Source: Agromyces sp. H17E-10 (lineage in GTDB: Bacteria > Actinomycetota > Actinomycetes > Actinomycetales > Microbacteriaceae). From it: a DNA stretch of 64,000 nucleotides. The translations under genes and the position numbers were made by a program. The stretch spans positions 930,001-994,000 of the forward strand of contig NZ_CP095042.1 in assembly GCF_022919715.1 (NCBI RefSeq). The letters are read 5' to 3'. Each line of letters begins with the position of its first letter. Within the stretch, counting starts at the first letter, position 1. Below the pieces are notes generated by a model. The model was not told where the DNA came from. It ran no database searches and was given only the letters and a program-made list of their open reading frames with translations. This document shows, in pieces, positions 1,901 through 63,946 of this stretch.

Positions 1901-1975
1901 GGTCGAGTAGCGACGAAGGAGCGTTTCGAGACCACCCGCCGCGGCCTCGATACGGGGCTGCGCGCCTACTCGACC
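1901..1975. repeat. Dispersed GGTCGAG...TCGAGACC repeat, inverted pair
   Basis: Arm 1 (1901-1933) begins GGTCGAGTAGCGACGAAGG and ends TTTCGAGACC; arm 2 (1946-1975) is its inverted partner ending CTACTCGACC. The pair forms a long hairpin between two convergent genes. Arm 2 provides the last codons and the TAG stop of the PLDc_N gene at 1966-2340. Other copies are listed at 27376, 30978, 39118, 41683, 41844, 42946, 43951 and 63873. Confidence 0.85.
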
Positions 1976-26068: not shown

Positions 26069-27381
26069 TGCTCGTACGATCATCCGTTAGACACCGCATC
26101 GTGGCGGTCCGTCCTCGACGCGCGGCCGACTTCTCGCGCCTCTGGGTCGCACAGGGCGCCGGTGTCGCGGCCGCCCAGGTCGCCGAGCTCGCCCTGCCGC
26201 TGCTCGCGGTGCTCACGCTGAACGCCTCCGCGCTCGAACTCGGGCTGCTCGGGGTCGCACGGTGGCTGCCGTTCCTGCTGCTCGCGCTGCCGCTCGGCGT
26301 GCTCGTCGACCGGCACCGTCGTCGCCCGATGATCGTCATCTCCGACTGGGGCCGCGCCGCGCTCACCGTCGCGATCATCGTCGCGGCCGTCGCGGGCATG
26401 CTGACGATGCCGGCCCTGCTCCTGCTCGCCGCGGCGATCGGCTGCTTCACCGTGCTCTTCGAGGTGTCGTACCAGTCGATCGTGCCGAGCGTCGTCCCAC
26501 CCTCGGGGCTCGCCTCCGCGAACTCGAAGCTCGCCGCCACGGCGGCCGCCATCCAGGTCGGCGGTCCGGGGCTCGGCGGGCTGCTCGTGCAGCTCATCAC
26601 CGCGCCGCTCGCCCTCCTCGTCACGGCGGGCGGCTACGTCATCTCGGCCCTCTCGGTCGGCGGCATCCGTGCGCATGAGACCCTGCCCGCCGAGCGAGGC
26701 CGCTTCATCGACGAACTGCGGGCCGGGCTCTCGTTCGTGCGCCGCGACAGGTACCTCGTCGCGAACCTCGGGTTCTCGGCGCTCTACAACCCCTTCATCC
26801 AGTGGGTCATGGTGCTGTTCCTGCTGCACGCGGTCGACGAGCTCGGGCTCGACGCGTTCCAGGTCGGCCTCATCCTCGCGATCGGAGCGACGGGCGCGCT
26901 GGCGGGCTCGCTCCTCGCGGGGCCGCTCGTCCGGAGGTTCGGGGCGGGCCGCCCCATCCTGCTGACCGCGATCGCCGAGTGCGTCGTGCTGCTCGTGCTC
27001 CCGGTCGCGGATGCCTCGTGGGGTGCACCCCTGCTCGTCATCGTGCTCGGACTCGTGTTCGCCGTCGGCGACGCCGGGGCGACGCTGTCGAGCGTCATCC
27101 TCATCACGATCCGGCAGCTGCGCACGCCCGACCACATGCTCGGGCGCGTGAACGCGAGCATGCGCTGGGTCTCGTACGGCACGATCGCGTTCGGCGCTGC
27201 CGCCGGCGGCATCGTCGGCGAGCTCGTCGGCACGCGCCTCGGCATCCTGATCGGCGTGCTCTTCACGTTCGCGGCCGTGATCTGGGTCGCACTCGGCCCG
27301 CTGCCGCGCGTCACCGACCCCGCCGAGCTCGCGATCCCCGAGCGGCGCGAGCCCGAGGCATCCCCGGTCGCCGCTGGTTGA
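26068..27381 (+). CDS. MFS transporter (enterobactin-exporter-like subgroup)
   Basis: A 437-residue inner-membrane transporter with about 12 helices. The loop between helices 2 and 3 carries PLGVLVDRHRRRPMIV, the MFS motif A. The overall pattern, including LGRVNASMRWVSYGTIAFGAA in the second half, matches the drug/siderophore exporter branch (MFS_3, EntS-like). The frame ends within a dispersed repeat, whose GGTTGA supplies the last glycine and the TGA stop. It is divergent from the CGNR regulator, suggesting inducible efflux. Confidence 0.85.
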   Translation: MLVRSSVRHRIVAVRPRRAADFSRLWVAQGAGVAAAQVAELALPLLAVLTLNASALELGLLGVARWLPFLLLALPLGVLVDRHRRRPMIVISDWGRAALTVAIIVAAVAGMLTMPALLLLAAAIGCFTVLFEVSYQSIVPSVVPPSGLASANSKLAATAAAIQVGGPGLGGLLVQLITAPLALLVTAGGYVISALSVGGIRAHETLPAERGRFIDELRAGLSFVRRDRYLVANLGFSALYNPFIQWVMVLFLLHAVDELGLDAFQVGLILAIGATGALAGSLLAGPLVRRFGAGRPILLTAIAECVVLLVLPVADASWGAPLLVIVLGLVFAVGDAGATLSSVILITIRQLRTPDHMLGRVNASMRWVSYGTIAFGAAAGGIVGELVGTRLGILIGVLFTFAAVIWVALGPLPRVTDPAELAIPERREPEASPVAAG

Positions 27382-27557
27382 GGAGCGAGCGACGAAGGAG
27401 CACGCGTCTTCCCTCCGCTGGTTGAGGAGCGAGCGACGAAGGAGCACGCGTCTCGAAACCCTTGCGAGCCGGTTTCGAGACGCGTCGCCGCTCCGCGTCG
27501 GCGCTCCTCAACCAGCAGGAGAGACGCGTCGCCGCTCCGCGTCGGCGCTCCTCAACC
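27376..27557. repeat. Cluster of four dispersed GGTTGAG repeat arms
   Basis: Two arms in plus orientation (27376-27410, then 27420-27460) are followed by two inverted arms (27471-27513 and 27521-27557). The plus arms begin GGTTGAGGAGCGAGCGACG and end TCTCGAAACC. The cluster forms a strong hairpin between convergent genes and provides stop codons for both the MFS gene (27379-27381) and the membrane protein at 27552. Confidence 0.88.
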
Positions 27558-28982
27558 AGCGGGAGGGGTGCGGCGCTGCGCGCGTCGATCGCGCTTGGCA
27601 CGTCGGCGCTGCTCGGCCAGACGACGGCCGGCGAGCGACGACTGGTCGGGGTCTCCGGGCGAGAGCGCCGCGCGCAGCAGGTTGCGCTCGCGAACGGCGC
27701 CGCGCAGGTCGGCCATGCCGACGAGCGTCGCGAGCGTCGGCGCGGCGACCACCACGGCGACCGCCACCGCGAGCGCGATGCCGGGTCGCCCGGCCCTCAG
27801 GTCAGACCCGGCGAATCCCGCGATCGCGAACAGGGCGATCGGCATGATCGCGGCGACGATCGCCAGCGACGCCCACCGCCCGGCCCGCGGGTCGAGCAGC
27901 AGCGCGTCGGTGACCTCATCGGGAGCACGCCTCGGTCGCCCGTCGGCGACCCAGCGCACCGCGGCCAGCTCGACGCGGCGCATCATGACGATCCGCACGA
28001 CGGCGAGCCCGATCGTGATCGCCAGTGCGCACGCGATCGCGACGCCGCCCCAGAGGCTGAGCCCGTCGATGAACCGTTCGACCGGCTCGTCGAAGTAGCG
28101 TTCGTCGCACTGCCGGCACGGCTGTCGCAGCCAGACCGACACGAACCAGATCGCCGCCACCGCGAAGAGCGCGCACCCCGCGACGAGGAGCGCGCGGTCG
28201 ATGACGCGGAAGAAGCGTTCGCGCAGCAGCGCGGGCGGGTCCTCGACCGGGGATGCCTCGCGCCGATGTTCCTCGGCGAAGTCGGCGGCGACGACCGTAC
28301 GGTTCCAGCCCACCTCGAGCTCGGCGCGGCGGGCCTCCTGCCCCTCCTCGACGCCGAGCAGGATCGACCGCACGACGAGCCACGCGACGATCACCGCCGC
28401 GCTGACGCCCACGATCGTCCACACGACGGGTGTCCGTCCCTCGTCGTCGAACAGCGCGAAGCACAGACAGAAGCCGCCGACCGCCATGGCGATCACGGCG
28501 ACCGCGAGCACCGCACGGCGGACGTGACGGGCGGGAAGGATCGCGAGCCGTGCGCGCTGCCCCGCCGACGGCACCTGGTCGGGGTGCGCGGCGACGTGGC
28601 GTTCGAGCAGCCGCAGCGACGTCGTGGCGTCGAGGGCGCCGAGCAAGGGAATCGCGAGCGCCAGCGCCGCGGCGAGCCCGAACAGCGGCAGCACCGTCGC
28701 GCGGAAGAACTCCTCGAACTCGAGCTCGCGCGACAGGTCGCCGAGCGCTTCGTCGCCGACGATCGCGGTGATGAGCAACAGCAGCCACGTCGCCCCCGCG
28801 CCGATGGCGAAGGCGTTCGCGAGTCCGGCCGCCGTGCGTGCGAAGGCCGAAGCCGACGTCTCGGGCACCTCGACGAACCGGACGTCGCGCAGTTCGCGCT
28901 CGACGCGAGCGCGCTCCGCCCGGCGTCGTGCGGTGCGGGCGGCGCGTCCGCGTGAAAACCGCTCGTCGTGGGCGCGCACCAC
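27552..28982 (-). CDS. Uncharacterised multi-pass membrane protein
   Basis: A 476-residue protein that I do not recognise. About 50 basic cytoplasmic residues are followed by roughly eight transmembrane helices arranged in pairs. A short external loop contains the pair of cysteines RQPCRQCDERYF (near residue 295), a possible metal or disulphide site. The C-terminal tail is strongly basic (AEQRRRAKRDRRAQRR). The final residues TPPAG and the stop lie in a dispersed repeat, so the C-terminus may have been altered by the repeat. No operon partner is evident. Confidence 0.65.
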   Translation of the reverse strand: MVRAHDERFSRGRAARTARRRAERARVERELRDVRFVEVPETSASAFARTAAGLANAFAIGAGATWLLLLITAIVGDEALGDLSRELEFEEFFRATVLPLFGLAAALALAIPLLGALDATTSLRLLERHVAAHPDQVPSAGQRARLAILPARHVRRAVLAVAVIAMAVGGFCLCFALFDDEGRTPVVWTIVGVSAAVIVAWLVVRSILLGVEEGQEARRAELEVGWNRTVVAADFAEEHRREASPVEDPPALLRERFFRVIDRALLVAGCALFAVAAIWFVSVWLRQPCRQCDERYFDEPVERFIDGLSLWGGVAIACALAITIGLAVVRIVMMRRVELAAVRWVADGRPRRAPDEVTDALLLDPRAGRWASLAIVAAIMPIALFAIAGFAGSDLRAGRPGIALAVAVAVVVAAPTLATLVGMADLRGAVRERNLLRAALSPGDPDQSSLAGRRLAEQRRRAKRDRRAQRRTPPAG

Positions 28983-30977: not shown

Positions 30978-31047
30978 GGTCGAGTAGCGCGTGACTCCCC
31001 ACCGCCGGTCGAGTAGCGCGCGACGAAGGAGCACGCGTATCGAGACC
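30978..31047. repeat. Dispersed GGTCGAG repeat, one truncated and one complete arm
   Basis: GGTCGAGTAGCGCG at 30978 is cut short after about 20 bp; a full arm follows at 31007-31047, ending GTATCGAGACC. It lies between the small membrane protein and the inositol-monophosphatase homologue. Confidence 0.8.
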
Positions 31048-41032: not shown

Positions 41033-41688
41033 ACGTGCGCGTGCTGATCGCCGACGACCAGGAGCTCGTGCGGTCGGGCCTGCGCATGATCCTCGATGCG
41101 CAGCCCGGCATCGAGGTGGTCGGCGAGGCCGCCGACGGCGCCGCGGCGGTCTCCCTCGCGCGCGAGCTGCGGCCCGACGTGTGCCTGTTCGACATCCGGA
41201 TGCCGGTGATGGACGGTCTCGAGGCGACGCGTGAGCTCGCGGGGCCCGGGATCGCCGACCCGATGGCGGTCGTGGTCATCACGACGTTCGATCTCGACGA
41301 GTACGTCTACGGCGCGCTGCGGGTGGGCGCGCGCGGATTCCTGCTCAAGAACGCCGGGCCCGTGCTGCTCGCCGAGGCCGTGCACGCGGCCGCCCGCGGC
41401 GACGCGCTCATCGACCCGAACGTGACGGTGCGCCTCATCGAGGCGTTCGCGGGGTCGGCTGGATCCGCACCTGCAGTACCGGTGGCACCGGTCACCCCGC
41501 TCACCGACCGCGAGGAGGACGTGCTCGCCGCGCTCGCCCGCGGCCTCGGCAACACCGAGATCGGGCGCGAGCTGCACATCTCGCTGAGCACGGTGAAGAC
41601 GCACATCGCGAGCATCATGGCCAAGACGGGCGCCCGCAACCGCGTCGAGCTCGCGATCTGGGCGCACGAGCGCGCCGCCGCCGGTTGA
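41029..41688 (+). CDS. LuxR/NarL-family response regulator
   Basis: A 219-residue regulator. The receiver domain has the acidic pair DD at 9-10, phosphoacceptor aspartate in CLFDIRMPVMDG (near 54) and lysine in FLLKNAGP (near 105). The C-terminal LuxR helix-turn-helix contains LTDREEDVLAALARGLGNTEIGRELHISLSTVKTHI. It is coupled to the kinase at 39875. The last glycine and stop (GGTTGA) lie in a dispersed repeat, so the natural C-terminus may once have been different. Confidence 0.88.
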   Translation: MNVRVLIADDQELVRSGLRMILDAQPGIEVVGEAADGAAAVSLARELRPDVCLFDIRMPVMDGLEATRELAGPGIADPMAVVVITTFDLDEYVYGALRVGARGFLLKNAGPVLLAEAVHAAARGDALIDPNVTVRLIEAFAGSAGSAPAVPVAPVTPLTDREEDVLAALARGLGNTEIGRELHISLSTVKTHIASIMAKTGARNRVELAIWAHERAAAG

Positions 41689-41768
41689 GTAGCGCCCGAC
41701 GGAGTCGGACGCGTATCGAAACCCTTGGGTTGAGGAGCGCCTGACGAAGGAGCACGCGTATCGAGACC
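41683..41768. repeat. Two tandem dispersed GGTTGAG repeat arms
   Basis: Arms at 41683-41723 and 41728-41768, both in plus orientation, each running from GGTTGAG to GTATCGARACC. The first supplies the stop codon of the response regulator gene. Confidence 0.85.
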
Positions 41769-41783
41769 CGCGACCGCGCACGA

Positions 41784-41822
41784 CGAACGCCCGGCCCTCG
41801 GGGAACGAGGGCCGGGGGTTCG
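41784..41822. terminator. Bidirectional terminator between convergent genes
   Basis: CCCGGCCCTCG (41790-41800) and CGAGGGCCGGG (41806-41816) with loop GGGAA, extended by CGAAC/GTTCG outer arms. It separates the response regulator and the Clp ATPase gene. Confidence 0.85.
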
Positions 41823-41843
41823 GTTTCGCAGGTCGGGTCACTG

Positions 41844-41877
41844 GGTTTCGAGACGGCGCTGGCGCGCCTCCTCAACC
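41844..41877. repeat. Dispersed repeat arm, inverted orientation
   Basis: GGTTTCGAGACGGCGCTGGC at 41844 runs to CTCCTCAACC at 41877. It is the inverted partner of the two plus arms at 41683-41768 and ends 12 bp from the Clp stop codon. Confidence 0.82.
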
Positions 41878-41888
41878 GGCGGGAGGGG

Positions 41889-44522
41889 TTACGCCGCCAT
41901 CGGCACGAGACCGGCGGCGGTGACGACGAACTCGCCGTCGCGGGCGTCGACGTGCACCGCGCCCCCGTCGCCCACGGCACCCGAGACGAACAGGTCGGCG
42001 ATGCGGTCGTCGACCTCGCGCTGGATGACGCGGCGCAACGGGCGCGCACCGTACTCGGGCTCGTACCCTCGCTCGGCGAGCAGCGCGACCGCGGCATCGG
42101 TCACCTCGAGGCCGACCTCGCGCGAGGCGAGACGTCGCGCCGTGGCACCGAGCATCAGGCGCACGATCTGCTCGAGCTGGGGCTGGTCGAGCTTCTGGAA
42201 CAGCACGATCTCGTCGATGCGGTTGAGGAACTCGGGCCGCATGGCCTCGCGCAGCTTGCCCATGACGCGAGCCTTCACGTCGTCCTGCGACGCGAAGCCC
42301 GAGGCATCCGTGCCCGCGACGAAGCCGAGCGCACCCGACCGCGACGCGAGGAACTCCGAACCGAGGTTCGAGGTCATCACGACGACCGTGTTGCGGAAGT
42401 CGACCGTGCGGCCCTGGCCGTCGGTGAGGCGTCCGTCGTCGAGCACCTGCAGCAGCAGGTTGAACACGTCGGGGTGCGCCTTCTCGATCTCGTCGAACAG
42501 CACGATCGAGTACGGGTTGCGGCGCACGCGCTCGGTGAGCTGGCCGGCCTCGTCGTAGCCGACGTAGCCGGGAGGGGCGCCGACGAGGCGCGACACGGTG
42601 TGCCGCTCGCCGAACTCCGACATGTCGAATCGGATCACGGCGGTCTCGTCGTCGAACAGGCGGTCGGCGAGGGACTTCGCGAGCTCGGTCTTGCCGACAC
42701 CCGTCGGCCCGAGGAACAGGAACGACCCGACCGGCCGGCGGCTGTCGCCCATGCCGGTGCGGTTGCGGCGCACGGCCTTCGCGACCGCGGTGACCGCGTC
42801 GTCCTGCCCGATGACGCGCTGGTGCAGCTCGCCCTCGAGGTCGGCGAGGCGCTCGCGCTCGGTCTCAGTGAGGCGGTTCACCGGGATGCCGGTGGCCCGC
42901 GAGATCACCGCGGCGATGTCGGCCTCGTCGACAATGGTCGCCGCCGGTTGAGTAGCGAGCGACGAAGGAGCACGCGTATCGAAACCCTCGCTATCGGTGG
43001 TCTCGATACGGCGCTGCGCGCCTACTCGACCGACCGACGTCGCCTCATCGAGCTTCCCCTGCACCTTCGAGATCTCATCCCGAATCCGGGATGCCTCCTC
43101 ATAGTGCTCGTTCGACACCGCGGCGTTCTTCTCCGCCTCGAGCTCACCCAGGCGCACCTGCAGGGCGGAGACATCCACCTTCACGCCGAGGCGCAGCCGC
43201 AGGCGCGCGCCGGCCTGGTCGATGAGGTCGATCGCCTTGTCGGGCAGCACCCGGTCGGTCAGGTAGCGGGCGCTCAGTTCGACGGCGGCGCGGATCGCGG
43301 CATCCGTGTATTCGATGCCGTGGTGCTGCTCGTACGCAGGCTTGACGCCCTGCAGGATGAGCACGGCGTCGTCGATCGACGGCTCGCCGACGCGCACCGG
43401 CTGGAAGCGGCGCTCGAGCGCCGGGTCCTTCTCGATCTTGCGGTACTCGTTGAGCGTGGTCGCACCCACGAGGTGCAGGTCGCCGCGTGCGAGGCGGGGC
43501 TTCAGGATGTTGCCCGCGTCCATGCCGCCGTCGCCCGCACCACCTGCGCCGACGACCGTGTGCACCTCATCGATGAAGACGATGAGCTCGCCCTTGTTGT
43601 CGGCGATCTCCTCCATGGTCTTCGTGAGGCGCTCTTCGAAGTCGCCGCGGTAGCGGGTGCCGGCGAGCATGCCGGGCAGGTCGAGCGCGATGACGCGCTT
43701 GCCGAGCAGCGCCTCGGGCACGTTCTCCTCGACGATCGCGCGGGCGAGGCCCTCGACGATCGCCGTCTTGCCGACGCCGGCCTCGCCGACGAGCACCGGG
43801 TTGTTCTTGGTGCGGCGGCTGAGAATCTCAATCGTCTGCTCGATCTCGTCGGCACGCCCGATCACGGGGTCGAGCTCGCCGTTCGCGGCCAGCTCGGTGA
43901 GGTCCATGCCGAACTTGTCGAGCATCGGCGTGGTCGACTCCTCATCCGCGGGTTGAGGAGCACCCGACGAAGTCGGACGCGTCTCGAAACCGGTCCCCCC
44001 GTCGTGCTCACGCATCCCCTGCGTCAACGCCTCAGCCGTCACCCCAGCCCGAGCCAGCACCTGCCCCGCAGGCGCATCCTGCCCCAGCACCAACGCGAAG
44101 AACAGGTGCTCGGGGTCGATGTACGTCGCCCCCGACGAGCGCGCCACCTGGTAGCTGTGGAACAGCGCGCGGGAAGCACTCGGCGTGATCGTCGCCGCGT
44201 TGATGTCGGCGACCTCGCCGGCAGCGGGCAGACGTGCCTCGGTCGCCGTGATGATGCGTTCGGGGCTCGCGCCGATGCGTCGGATCGCCTGCTGCACGCT
44301 CTCGTCTTCGACGATGACGCGCAGGATGTGCAGGGCGTCGAGCTCGACCTGTCCGCGTTCGAGGGCGAAGCGGCCCGCCTGCTGAAGGATCGATTGAGTA
44401 CGGGCAGTCAAGAACCGGCTGAGGTCGATCGACCGCGCCTGCCGAGCTTGCTCACCCGCGAGGTATCGGGCGAGGAACTCGTCGAACGAGCTCGCGCCGG
44501 CCTCGTTGAAGTCGTTGGGCAC
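41889..44522 (-). CDS. clpC: ClpC-type AAA+ unfoldase with two repeat-derived linker insertions
   Basis: An 877-residue Clp ATPase. Order: double Clp_N domain (about 30-170), AAA-1 with Walker A GEAGVGKT (246-253) and IVFIDEVHT, a short UVR-like middle segment (about 450-490), AAA-2 with [10 protein letters not shown] and [12 protein letters not shown], and a C-terminal D2-small domain. An LGF loop in AAA-2 suggests ClpP binding. Residues about 178-191 ([14 protein letters not shown]) and 498-526 are encoded by dispersed repeats on the antisense strand of the repeat. Both lie in linkers between domains, leaving catalytic parts intact. GTG start with AGGAGG ribosome site; an HspR-like operator lies just upstream. 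Confidence 0.85.
42946..43031. repeat. Complete inverted repeat pair inside the Clp gene
   Basis: Arm 1 (42946-42985) reads GGTTGAGTAGCGAGCGACG to TATCGAAACC; arm 2 (42999-43031) reads GGTCTCGATACGGCGCTGCG to CTACTCGACC. In the Clp reading frame both arms are open and encode about 29 residues between the middle domain and AAA-2. Confidence 0.9.
43951..43991. repeat. Single dispersed repeat arm inside the Clp gene
   Basis: A 41-bp arm from GGTTGAGGAGCACCCGACG to TCTCGAAACC. Read on the minus strand it encodes [14 protein letters not shown] in the linker between the N-domain and AAA-1. Confidence 0.9.
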
Positions 44523-63872: not shown

Positions 63873-63946
63873 GGGTTTCGAGACGGCGCTTCGCGCCTCC
63901 TCAACCTGCCGCGGGTTTCGAGACGGCGCTTCGCGCCTCCTCAACC
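63873..63946. repeat. Two tandem dispersed repeat arms (inverted orientation)
   Basis: GGTTTCGAGACGGCGCTTCG to CTCCTCAACC at 63873-63906, repeated exactly 40 bp later at 63913-63946. It lies just beyond the stop codon of the minus-strand gene at the window's right edge. Confidence 0.85.

What the first reader, a model, noticed from the sequence alone, without database searches (positions are those of the whole stretch)
41889..44522. Dispersed palindromic repeats read in frame as protein linkers of a Clp ATPase
Two copies of the genome's GGTYGAG...TCGARACC repeat lie inside the Clp coding sequence (42946-43031 and 43951-43991). Both are read without stops on the antisense strand of the repeat and add about 29 and 14 residues. 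Both fall exactly in inter-domain linkers (N-domain to AAA-1, and middle domain to AAA-2). This is a visible case of a non-coding repeat being domesticated as protein sequence, comparable to the RPE elements of Rickettsia but in a Microbacteriaceae-type genome. The arm's antisense peptide (GFETRxxSS...PQP) recurs in both inserts.
Basis: partly seen in the sequence, partly recalled or inferred. Interest (0 to 1): 0.85.

Follow-up and report, generated by a model that had tools for sequence, protein, structure and literature searches.

The report
DNA hairpin repeats inside protein linkers
In a soil bacterium of the genus Agromyces, small hairpin-shaped DNA repeats that mostly sit between genes have also landed inside a protein-remodelling enzyme, where they are read as part of its flexible joints; related species carry different repeats at the same joints, which makes a usable natural record of how such repeats enter proteins.

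Summary
The window lies in an Agromyces genome. The ClpC-like gene at 41889-44522 (-) is intact and holds one repeat in the N-domain/AAA-1 linker (43951-43991) and an inverted doublet in the M-domain/AAA-2 linker (42946-42986, 42999-43031), all in frame. The repeat is a 31-44 nt imperfect hairpin with covarying stems, 260 copies in this genome. Of 47 Agromyces orthologues 31 carry exact-arm repeats, and 62 of 64 such hits fall in three linkers; other genera 1 of 55. Types, frames and presence differ between close species (at least 12, 13 and 16 changes at the three sites). In 1.26 Mb of this genome 37 of 190 repeats lie inside 21 genes, 33 of the 37 outside Pfam envelopes. An alpha-mannosidase carries the same cassette, with empty sites in relatives. 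"Domesticated" is not supported: tolerated insertions that turn over fit better. In-frame palindromic repeats are already known (Rickettsia RPEs, intragenic REPs). New here, as far as my searches reach, are this Microbacteriaceae repeat family, its repeated turnover at the same linkers, and the lack of an IS200/RAYT-type transposase in the genus genomes searched.

The parts
41889..44522 (-). ClpC-like AAA+ ATPase gene, 877 aa, open, with Clp_N, AAA, AAA lid, UVR (M-domain), AAA_2 and D2-small domains
   Evidence: ORF; Pfam; best solved-structure matches ClpC/MecB; K252/T253, D318/E319, K611/T612, D677/E678 invariant in 32 sequences
43951..43991 (-). 41-nt repeat in linker 1 (residues 178-191, N-domain to AAA-1), read [14 protein letters not shown]
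   Evidence: 1 mismatch from two other copies in the sampled genome
42999..43031 (-). 33-nt repeat, first half of the inverted doublet in linker 2 (M-domain to AAA-2), read [11 protein letters not shown]
   Evidence: identical to at least four other copies in the sampled genome
42946..42986 (-). 41-nt repeat, second half of the inverted doublet in linker 2, read [14 protein letters not shown]
   Evidence: 1 mismatch from another copy in the sampled genome
42987..42998 (-). 12-nt spacer between the two halves of the doublet
44187..44234 (-). Third linker (residues 97-112, between the two N-domain repeats): empty in this genome, filled with repeats in 14 of 47 relatives by eye, 9 by exact arms
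41683..41877 (.). Three further repeats just downstream of the Clp gene (41683-41723, 41728-41768, 41844-41877), mostly intergenic; the first overlaps the end of the neighbouring ORF
1901..1975 (.). Inverted doublet of the same family (second half with a changed outer arm)
27376..27565 (.). Cluster of same-family repeats, partly truncated copies
31007..31047 (+). Same-family repeat
63874..63946 (.). Two same-family repeats in direct orientation

Best explanation
A family of REP-like DNA hairpins (GGTY-TC-GAX-AC-G...CT-MTC-RACC, 31-44 nt, often inverted doublets) spreads in Agromyces genomes. Most surviving copies are between genes. A minority that land in frame in a flexible linker or loop are tolerated, translated, and later lost, replaced or worn down into ordinary linker sequence. 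This Clp has three tolerant linkers and has therefore collected repeats many times in the genus. Shown: anatomy, open in-frame reading, copy numbers, restriction to linkers, species-to-species turnover, the same cassette in an unrelated enzyme. Inferred: that selection against damage (not a target preference) confines them to linkers, that the peptides are near-neutral, that the protein is made and works. Unknown: what moves the repeat.
For: 62 of 64 exact-arm hits in 47 Agromyces Clp genes lie in three linkers. Presence/absence needs at least 12, 13 and 16 changes at the three sites, with different elements and frames at one site in close species. In the sampled 1.264 Mb 37 of 190 elements lie in 21 genes, all with Pfam domains; 33 of 37 lie outside Pfam envelopes, which make up 39.5% of residues (24 of 28 groups). 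GH38 alpha-mannosidase carries a cassette 76% identical to the Clp linker 2 insert and relatives have empty sites. Clp copies are 0-1 base from copies elsewhere in the genome. Decayed copies occur in relatives (L034, L049, L084).
Against: Four of 37 in-gene elements lie inside Pfam envelopes, and two second-family hits in Clp lie at residues 624-628 of AAA-2. Antisense copies strongly favour one frame (20 of 24), which simple tolerance does not predict. No protein-level data. Gain and loss cannot be separated on the tree.
Confidence: 0.75

Rival explanations
1. Domestication: the repeats are kept because the peptides do something useful, such as lengthening or tuning the linkers of the Clp motor.
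For: Linker 2 is longer in filled than unfilled Agromyces genes (median 43 and 27 aa; linker 1 37.5 and 35). The linkers of this motor were hit repeatedly. One antisense frame is favoured.
Against: 16 of 47 Agromyces genes have no exact-arm repeat. Types and frames change between close species. An unrelated alpha-mannosidase has the same cassette.
Confidence: 0.08
2. Target preference: the mover prefers DNA that happens to encode these linkers (for example GGTCG-like or GC-rich stretches), and selection plays little part.
For: Two palindrome families share the sites; GGTCG occurs in several unfilled linker 2 alleles.
Against: Repeats are rare inside genes overall (37 of 190) and avoid Pfam domains in 21 different proteins, which a local DNA motif would not explain. 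I did not test motifs at the target sites.
Confidence: 0.15
3. Old insertions plus repeat-to-repeat conversion: an ancestral element, at least in linker 2, was inherited and later changed type by recombination with other copies, or was lost, so that there were fewer independent insertions.
For: The S-then-AS layout of linker 2 recurs in many species, and relatives share decayed versions (L084, L115).
Against: Linker 1 holds elements in different frames, which conversion inside one old copy would not give. The two closest relatives lack the linker 2 insert. The parsimony count cannot tell gain from loss, so this stays open for part of linker 2.
Confidence: 0.2

Closest known systems
Rickettsia palindromic elements (RPE; Ogata et al. 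2000, known to me here through passages of Delihas 2007, PMC2229807, and Di Nocera 2013, PMC3733652)
   Same: Palindromic repeats fused in frame into conserved proteins; one RPE-bearing enzyme (guanylate kinase) stays active
   Different: RPEs are given as 105-146 bp and Rickettsia-specific; here units are 31-44 nt, of different sequence, in a free-living actinobacterial genus
Intragenic GTAG and CGTC REPs (Di Nocera et al. 2013, PMC3733652; passages and section 15 read)
   Same: 20-40 bp palindromes, inverted dimers, mostly intergenic near gene 3' ends, some inside ORFs adding 20-30 residues, different REPs at about the same site of recB in two Xanthomonas species; linkers proposed as tolerant
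   Different: No terminal GTAG or CGTC tag; that paper names Proteobacteria, Cyanobacteria, Chloroflexi and PVC for GTAG repeats, and 'actinobacteria' does not occur in it; here the recurrence is followed over 47 orthologues
REPtron / RAYT (TnpA-REP) systems and BIMEs (recalled, and the passages)
   Same: High-copy hairpins with stem mismatches, arranged as inverted pairs
   Different: No Y1_Tnp domain in the own genome or the 36 same-genus genomes searched

Membership tests
REP in the general sense | Short (20-40 bp) palindrome at high copy number | tested here: met
   260 matches against 0 reversed; 31-44 nt; stem partners match in 178 of 190 and 183 of 190 copies
REP in the general sense | Mainly outside genes, near gene 3' ends, often as inverted pairs | tested here: met
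   37 of 190 inside genes; 49 in convergent gaps where 22 are expected, 17 in divergent where 49 are expected; S>AS 37, same direction 18, AS>S 0 among pairs under 60 nt apart
GTAG REP / REPtron | Terminal GTAG tetranucleotide | tested here: not met
   The element ends in GGTYGAGKAG...; GTAG occurs only in the K=T variants and internally, not at the end (patterns and copies)
GTAG REP / REPtron | Associated tyrosine transposase (RAYT, Y1_Tnp domain) | tested here: not met
   PF01797: 0 in the own genome and 36 same-genus genomes; 2 of 60 genomes in all, both outside the genus; 5 of 14 control genomes positive
CGTC REP / RPE-4 and RPE-6 type | Terminal CGTC tetranucleotide | tested here: not met
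   CGTC appears only inside the N=C variants of CGTNTCGARACC, not at the end
RPE (Rickettsia) | In-frame insertion into conserved proteins | tested here: met
   21 Pfam-recognised proteins with 37 elements; empty sites in relatives for Clp and GH38
RPE (Rickettsia) | Expression of the insert-bearing protein | not testable with these tools
   No transcript or protein data
Rfam-described RNA family | Match at gathering score | tested here: not met
   0 matches in the window, gathering threshold only

The most novel reading that the evidence does not exclude
In Microbacteriaceae a REP-like hairpin family without a transposase of its own, moved by host repair or replication enzymes through deletion-plus-insertion, keeps rewriting the disordered linkers of multidomain proteins, so that a sizeable share of linker sequence in these bacteria is recycled hairpin DNA at various stages of decay.
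Probability: 0.35. Interest if true: 0.75.

Novelty: new variant of a known kind. Interest (0 to 1): 0.55.

Why it matters
It offers a comparative system (47 gene copies, three linkers, at least 41 changes in all) for asking how mobile repeats enter proteins and become ordinary linker sequence, with insert-free orthologues as controls. It also shows an abundant hairpin family, without a recognised IS200/RAYT-type transposase in the genus genomes searched, in free-living actinobacteria, which makes the question of how such repeats move testable there.

Tried and rejected
Domestication was considered and set aside for lack of evidence and because of the turnover. Chance was rejected (with the loose pattern 44 of 94 Agromyces linkers have an element, against a mean of 0.48 of 94 after shuffling). 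RAYT-type mobilisation was looked for by PF01797 and not found; other transposase families were not searched. Folding of single units as DNA: the two strands of the 41-nt linker 2 unit have z near 0, the other variants z -1.0 to -2.0, so the argument for a hairpin rests on covariation. Rfam gave nothing in the window.

Literature (open-access library only; 'listing' means that I saw the search listing alone): in-frame palindromes, (11 papers, listing; 276 papers, 20 listed); REP with Microbacteriaceae, (2 papers, listing, irrelevant); sequence strings, (340 papers hold at least one string, 20 listed, none relevant); Agromyces with palindromic, (11 papers, listing); RAYT with Actinobacteria and REP, (0); intragenic and linker terms, (33 papers, 15 listed); REP with Microbacterium, Nocardioides, Leifsonia, (95 papers, 15 listed). 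Passages were read in PMC3733652 (section 15 whole), PMC12306157 (one passage: a table of genomes in which a few Actinomycetota occur; no match for intragenic, Microbacteri or Agromyces) and PMC2229807.

The two-domain ABC ATPase was searched in 41 genus genomes but its inserts were not analysed there.

Rows dropped or judged by hand: 15 loci with proteins identical to another were merged (117 loci, 102 distinct). The loose pattern also marked L043 in linker 2, which I judged chance, so 22 became 21. The type labels for one search were assigned by eye; the third linker counts 14 by eye and 9 by exact arms. The loose pattern marks 4 of 55 other-genus genes in linker 2 and gives background hits in the rest of the genes (25 in Agromyces, of which several are the third linker; 36 in other genera). 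Exact arms leave 1 of 55 and 2 hits elsewhere in Agromyces. Frame numbers printed for S elements are off by an offset slip of mine; those are right. The Pfam envelopes were typed; LigD was scanned in two pieces and one ABC envelope was merged from overlapping hits.

Full report
What the window is. The window is 930001-994000 of a 4.25 Mb single-contig genome. By this gene its nearest named relatives are Agromyces sp. S2-1-8 and A. lapidis. The gene at 41889-44522 (-) encodes an 877-aa AAA+ protein. Its best solved-structure matches are ClpC/MecB and its Pfam domains are Clp_N, AAA, AAA lid, UVR, AAA_2 and D2-small. A paralogue of about 50% identity lies at G000:C1:2866849-2869215. Key P-loop and Walker B residues are invariant in a 32-sequence alignment, so the gene looks functional.

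The observation. Both insert regions exist as described. Linker 1 holds one 41-nt element, read [14 protein letters not shown]. Linker 2 holds an inverted doublet of a 33-nt and a 41-nt element 12 nt apart, read in mRNA order as [11 protein letters not shown] and [14 protein letters not shown]. In the AlphaFold model both lie in segments with pLDDT under 50 (171-194, 497-527), but eight other segments are also under 50, the model is moderate (mean 69.4, pTM 0.33, 32 sequences), and alignment gaps at the inserts lower confidence there anyway.

The repeat. The relaxed pattern occurs 260 times in this genome and 0 times reversed. Among 190 copies read in full, the X of TCGAXACG and the M of CTMCTC are G-C or T-A in 178, and the Y of GGTY and the R of RACC are T-A or C-G in 183. 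This supports a hairpin with an outer stem, an asymmetric bulge, a middle stem and a variable inner stem; single variants differ in predicted stability. Neighbours under 60 nt apart are S then AS 37 times, same direction 18 times, AS then S never. Outside genes the copies favour convergent gaps (49 where 22 are expected) and avoid divergent ones (17 where 49 are expected). Copy number in 36 same-genus genomes ranges from 0 to 269. In a sample of 150 Microbacteriaceae genomes 75 have at least one match, many of them only one or two, which may be chance; the highest count is 666.

No transposase of the expected kind. PF01797 (Y1_Tnp, the IS200/RAYT domain) is absent from the own genome and the 36 same-genus genomes searched; 2 of the 60 genomes have it, both outside the genus, and 5 of 14 controls. 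Other transposase families were not searched.

The same gene in relatives. I collected 117 loci; 102 proteins are distinct, 47 from Agromyces or same-genus genomes and 55 from other genera. With exact arms 31 of 47 Agromyces genes hold a repeat, against 1 of 55. Of 64 exact-arm hits 30 fall in linker 2, 23 in linker 1, 9 in a third linker between the two N-domain repeats (residues 97-112) and 2 at residues 624-628 (both A. mediolanus). The linkers hold antisense copies in two frames, sense copies, and a second palindrome family (TTCGACARGCTCA-like; peptides SLRQAQGT, GFDKLNQQ). Three genomes with no first-family copy by the exact pattern (G003, G024, G030) carry the second family in linker 1, and two of them also in linker 2. 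On a gene tree without the linker columns, presence/absence needs at least 12, 13 and 16 changes (third linker, linker 1, linker 2), and 12, 16 and 20 by type. The tree has 9 open forks of 50, one outgroup row falls among the Agromyces rows, and the count cannot separate gain from loss. The two closest relatives lack the linker 2 insert and have their own elements in linker 1. The Clp copies are 0 or 1 base from copies elsewhere in the sampled genome, so they are young or were recently renewed. Filled linkers are longer: medians 37.5 against 35 aa for linker 1 and 43 against 27 aa for linker 2.

It is not only Clp. In 1.264 Mb of this genome (blocks largely chosen for holding repeats) a simple codon-usage gene caller of mine gives 1119 genes covering 89.5%. 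Of 190 elements 37 lie inside 21 genes, 31 overlap gene ends and 122 are intergenic. All 21 genes have Pfam domains, among them LigD, a two-domain ABC ATPase, a MocR-type regulator, a beta-galactosidase, an alpha-mannosidase and an MTS methyltransferase. By midpoint 33 of 37 lie outside Pfam envelopes, while 39.5% of the residues do; grouped within 60 residues, 24 of 28. Nine of the 37 lie within 60 residues of a protein end, where the called start or stop could be wrong, and stretches without a Pfam match are not all linkers, so the test is rough. In LigD the doublet falls between the phosphoesterase and ligase domains, in the MocR-type protein one element falls between the GntR and aminotransferase domains.

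Independent replication. The GH38 alpha-mannosidase (G000:C1:2733496-2736822) has repeats at three sites. In an alignment with 20 relatives most lack them; L241 and L246 have other or related repeats at the same places, and L242 at the third. The insert at residues 145-182 hits the Clp linker 2 insert at 76% identity, E 6.2e-9. In one near pair (L246, L242) the filled loop has 42 nt where the empty one has 12 (my reading), so the change looks like replacement, though later deletion cannot be excluded.

Interpretation. Tolerated insertion in flexible linkers, followed by turnover and decay, explains the placement, the shortage inside genes, the mix of types and frames, and the presence in unrelated enzymes. 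The excess of one antisense frame in this genome (20 of 24) is not explained. In-gene copies keep both covarying pairs somewhat less often (30 of 37 against 143 of 153, p 0.026), as expected if the hairpin matters less there. Domestication has no positive support here.

Relation to known work. Delihas 2007 (passages) reports Rickettsia palindromic elements in 19 reading frames and an active RPE-bearing guanylate kinase. Di Nocera 2013 (passages and section 15) reports intragenic REPs, dimers adding 20-30 residues, different REPs at about the same site of recB in two Xanthomonas species, and proposes linkers as tolerant places. The kind is therefore known. I found no description of this repeat family or its coding copies in the searches listed under Tried and rejected; that library lacks most subscription papers.

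Noticed in passing
G000:C1 659176-3086796; dnaA at 1987815-1989185: All 41 strict-pattern copies lie between 0.66 and 3.09 Mb, centred near dnaA: the repeats seem concentrated in the origin half of the chromosome. The relaxed lists (capped at 100 of 260 rows) show a few copies outside.
   Followed up: partly
Own genome, 24 antisense in-gene copies: 20 of 24 antisense in-gene copies are read in the same frame (GGT TTC/CTC GAX ACG) although all three antisense frames of the arms are free of stops. Unexplained.
   Followed up: partly
L058, L060, L061 (G030, G003, G024; the last two are A. mediolanus): A second palindrome family (CTTCGACAGGCTCAGGGA, peptide SLRQAQGT) fills Clp linkers in genomes without the first family by the exact pattern.
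   Followed up: partly
L199:8978-11200 (-), two-domain ABC ATPase: Four repeats in one gene, three between the two ATPase domains and one inside the second; alignments in relatives break in this region.
   Followed up: no
G017:C1 431328-431504, 515174-515837, 1015412-1015968: Regularly spaced tandem runs of the same element in another Agromyces genome.
   Followed up: no
G104 (another Microbacteriaceae genus, unnamed): 666 copies by the relaxed pattern, the highest count.
   Followed up: no
Own genome, non-gene repeats in the sampled 1.264 Mb: Repeats favour convergent gene gaps and avoid divergent ones, a REP-like pattern that would fit a role at transcript ends.
   Followed up: partly
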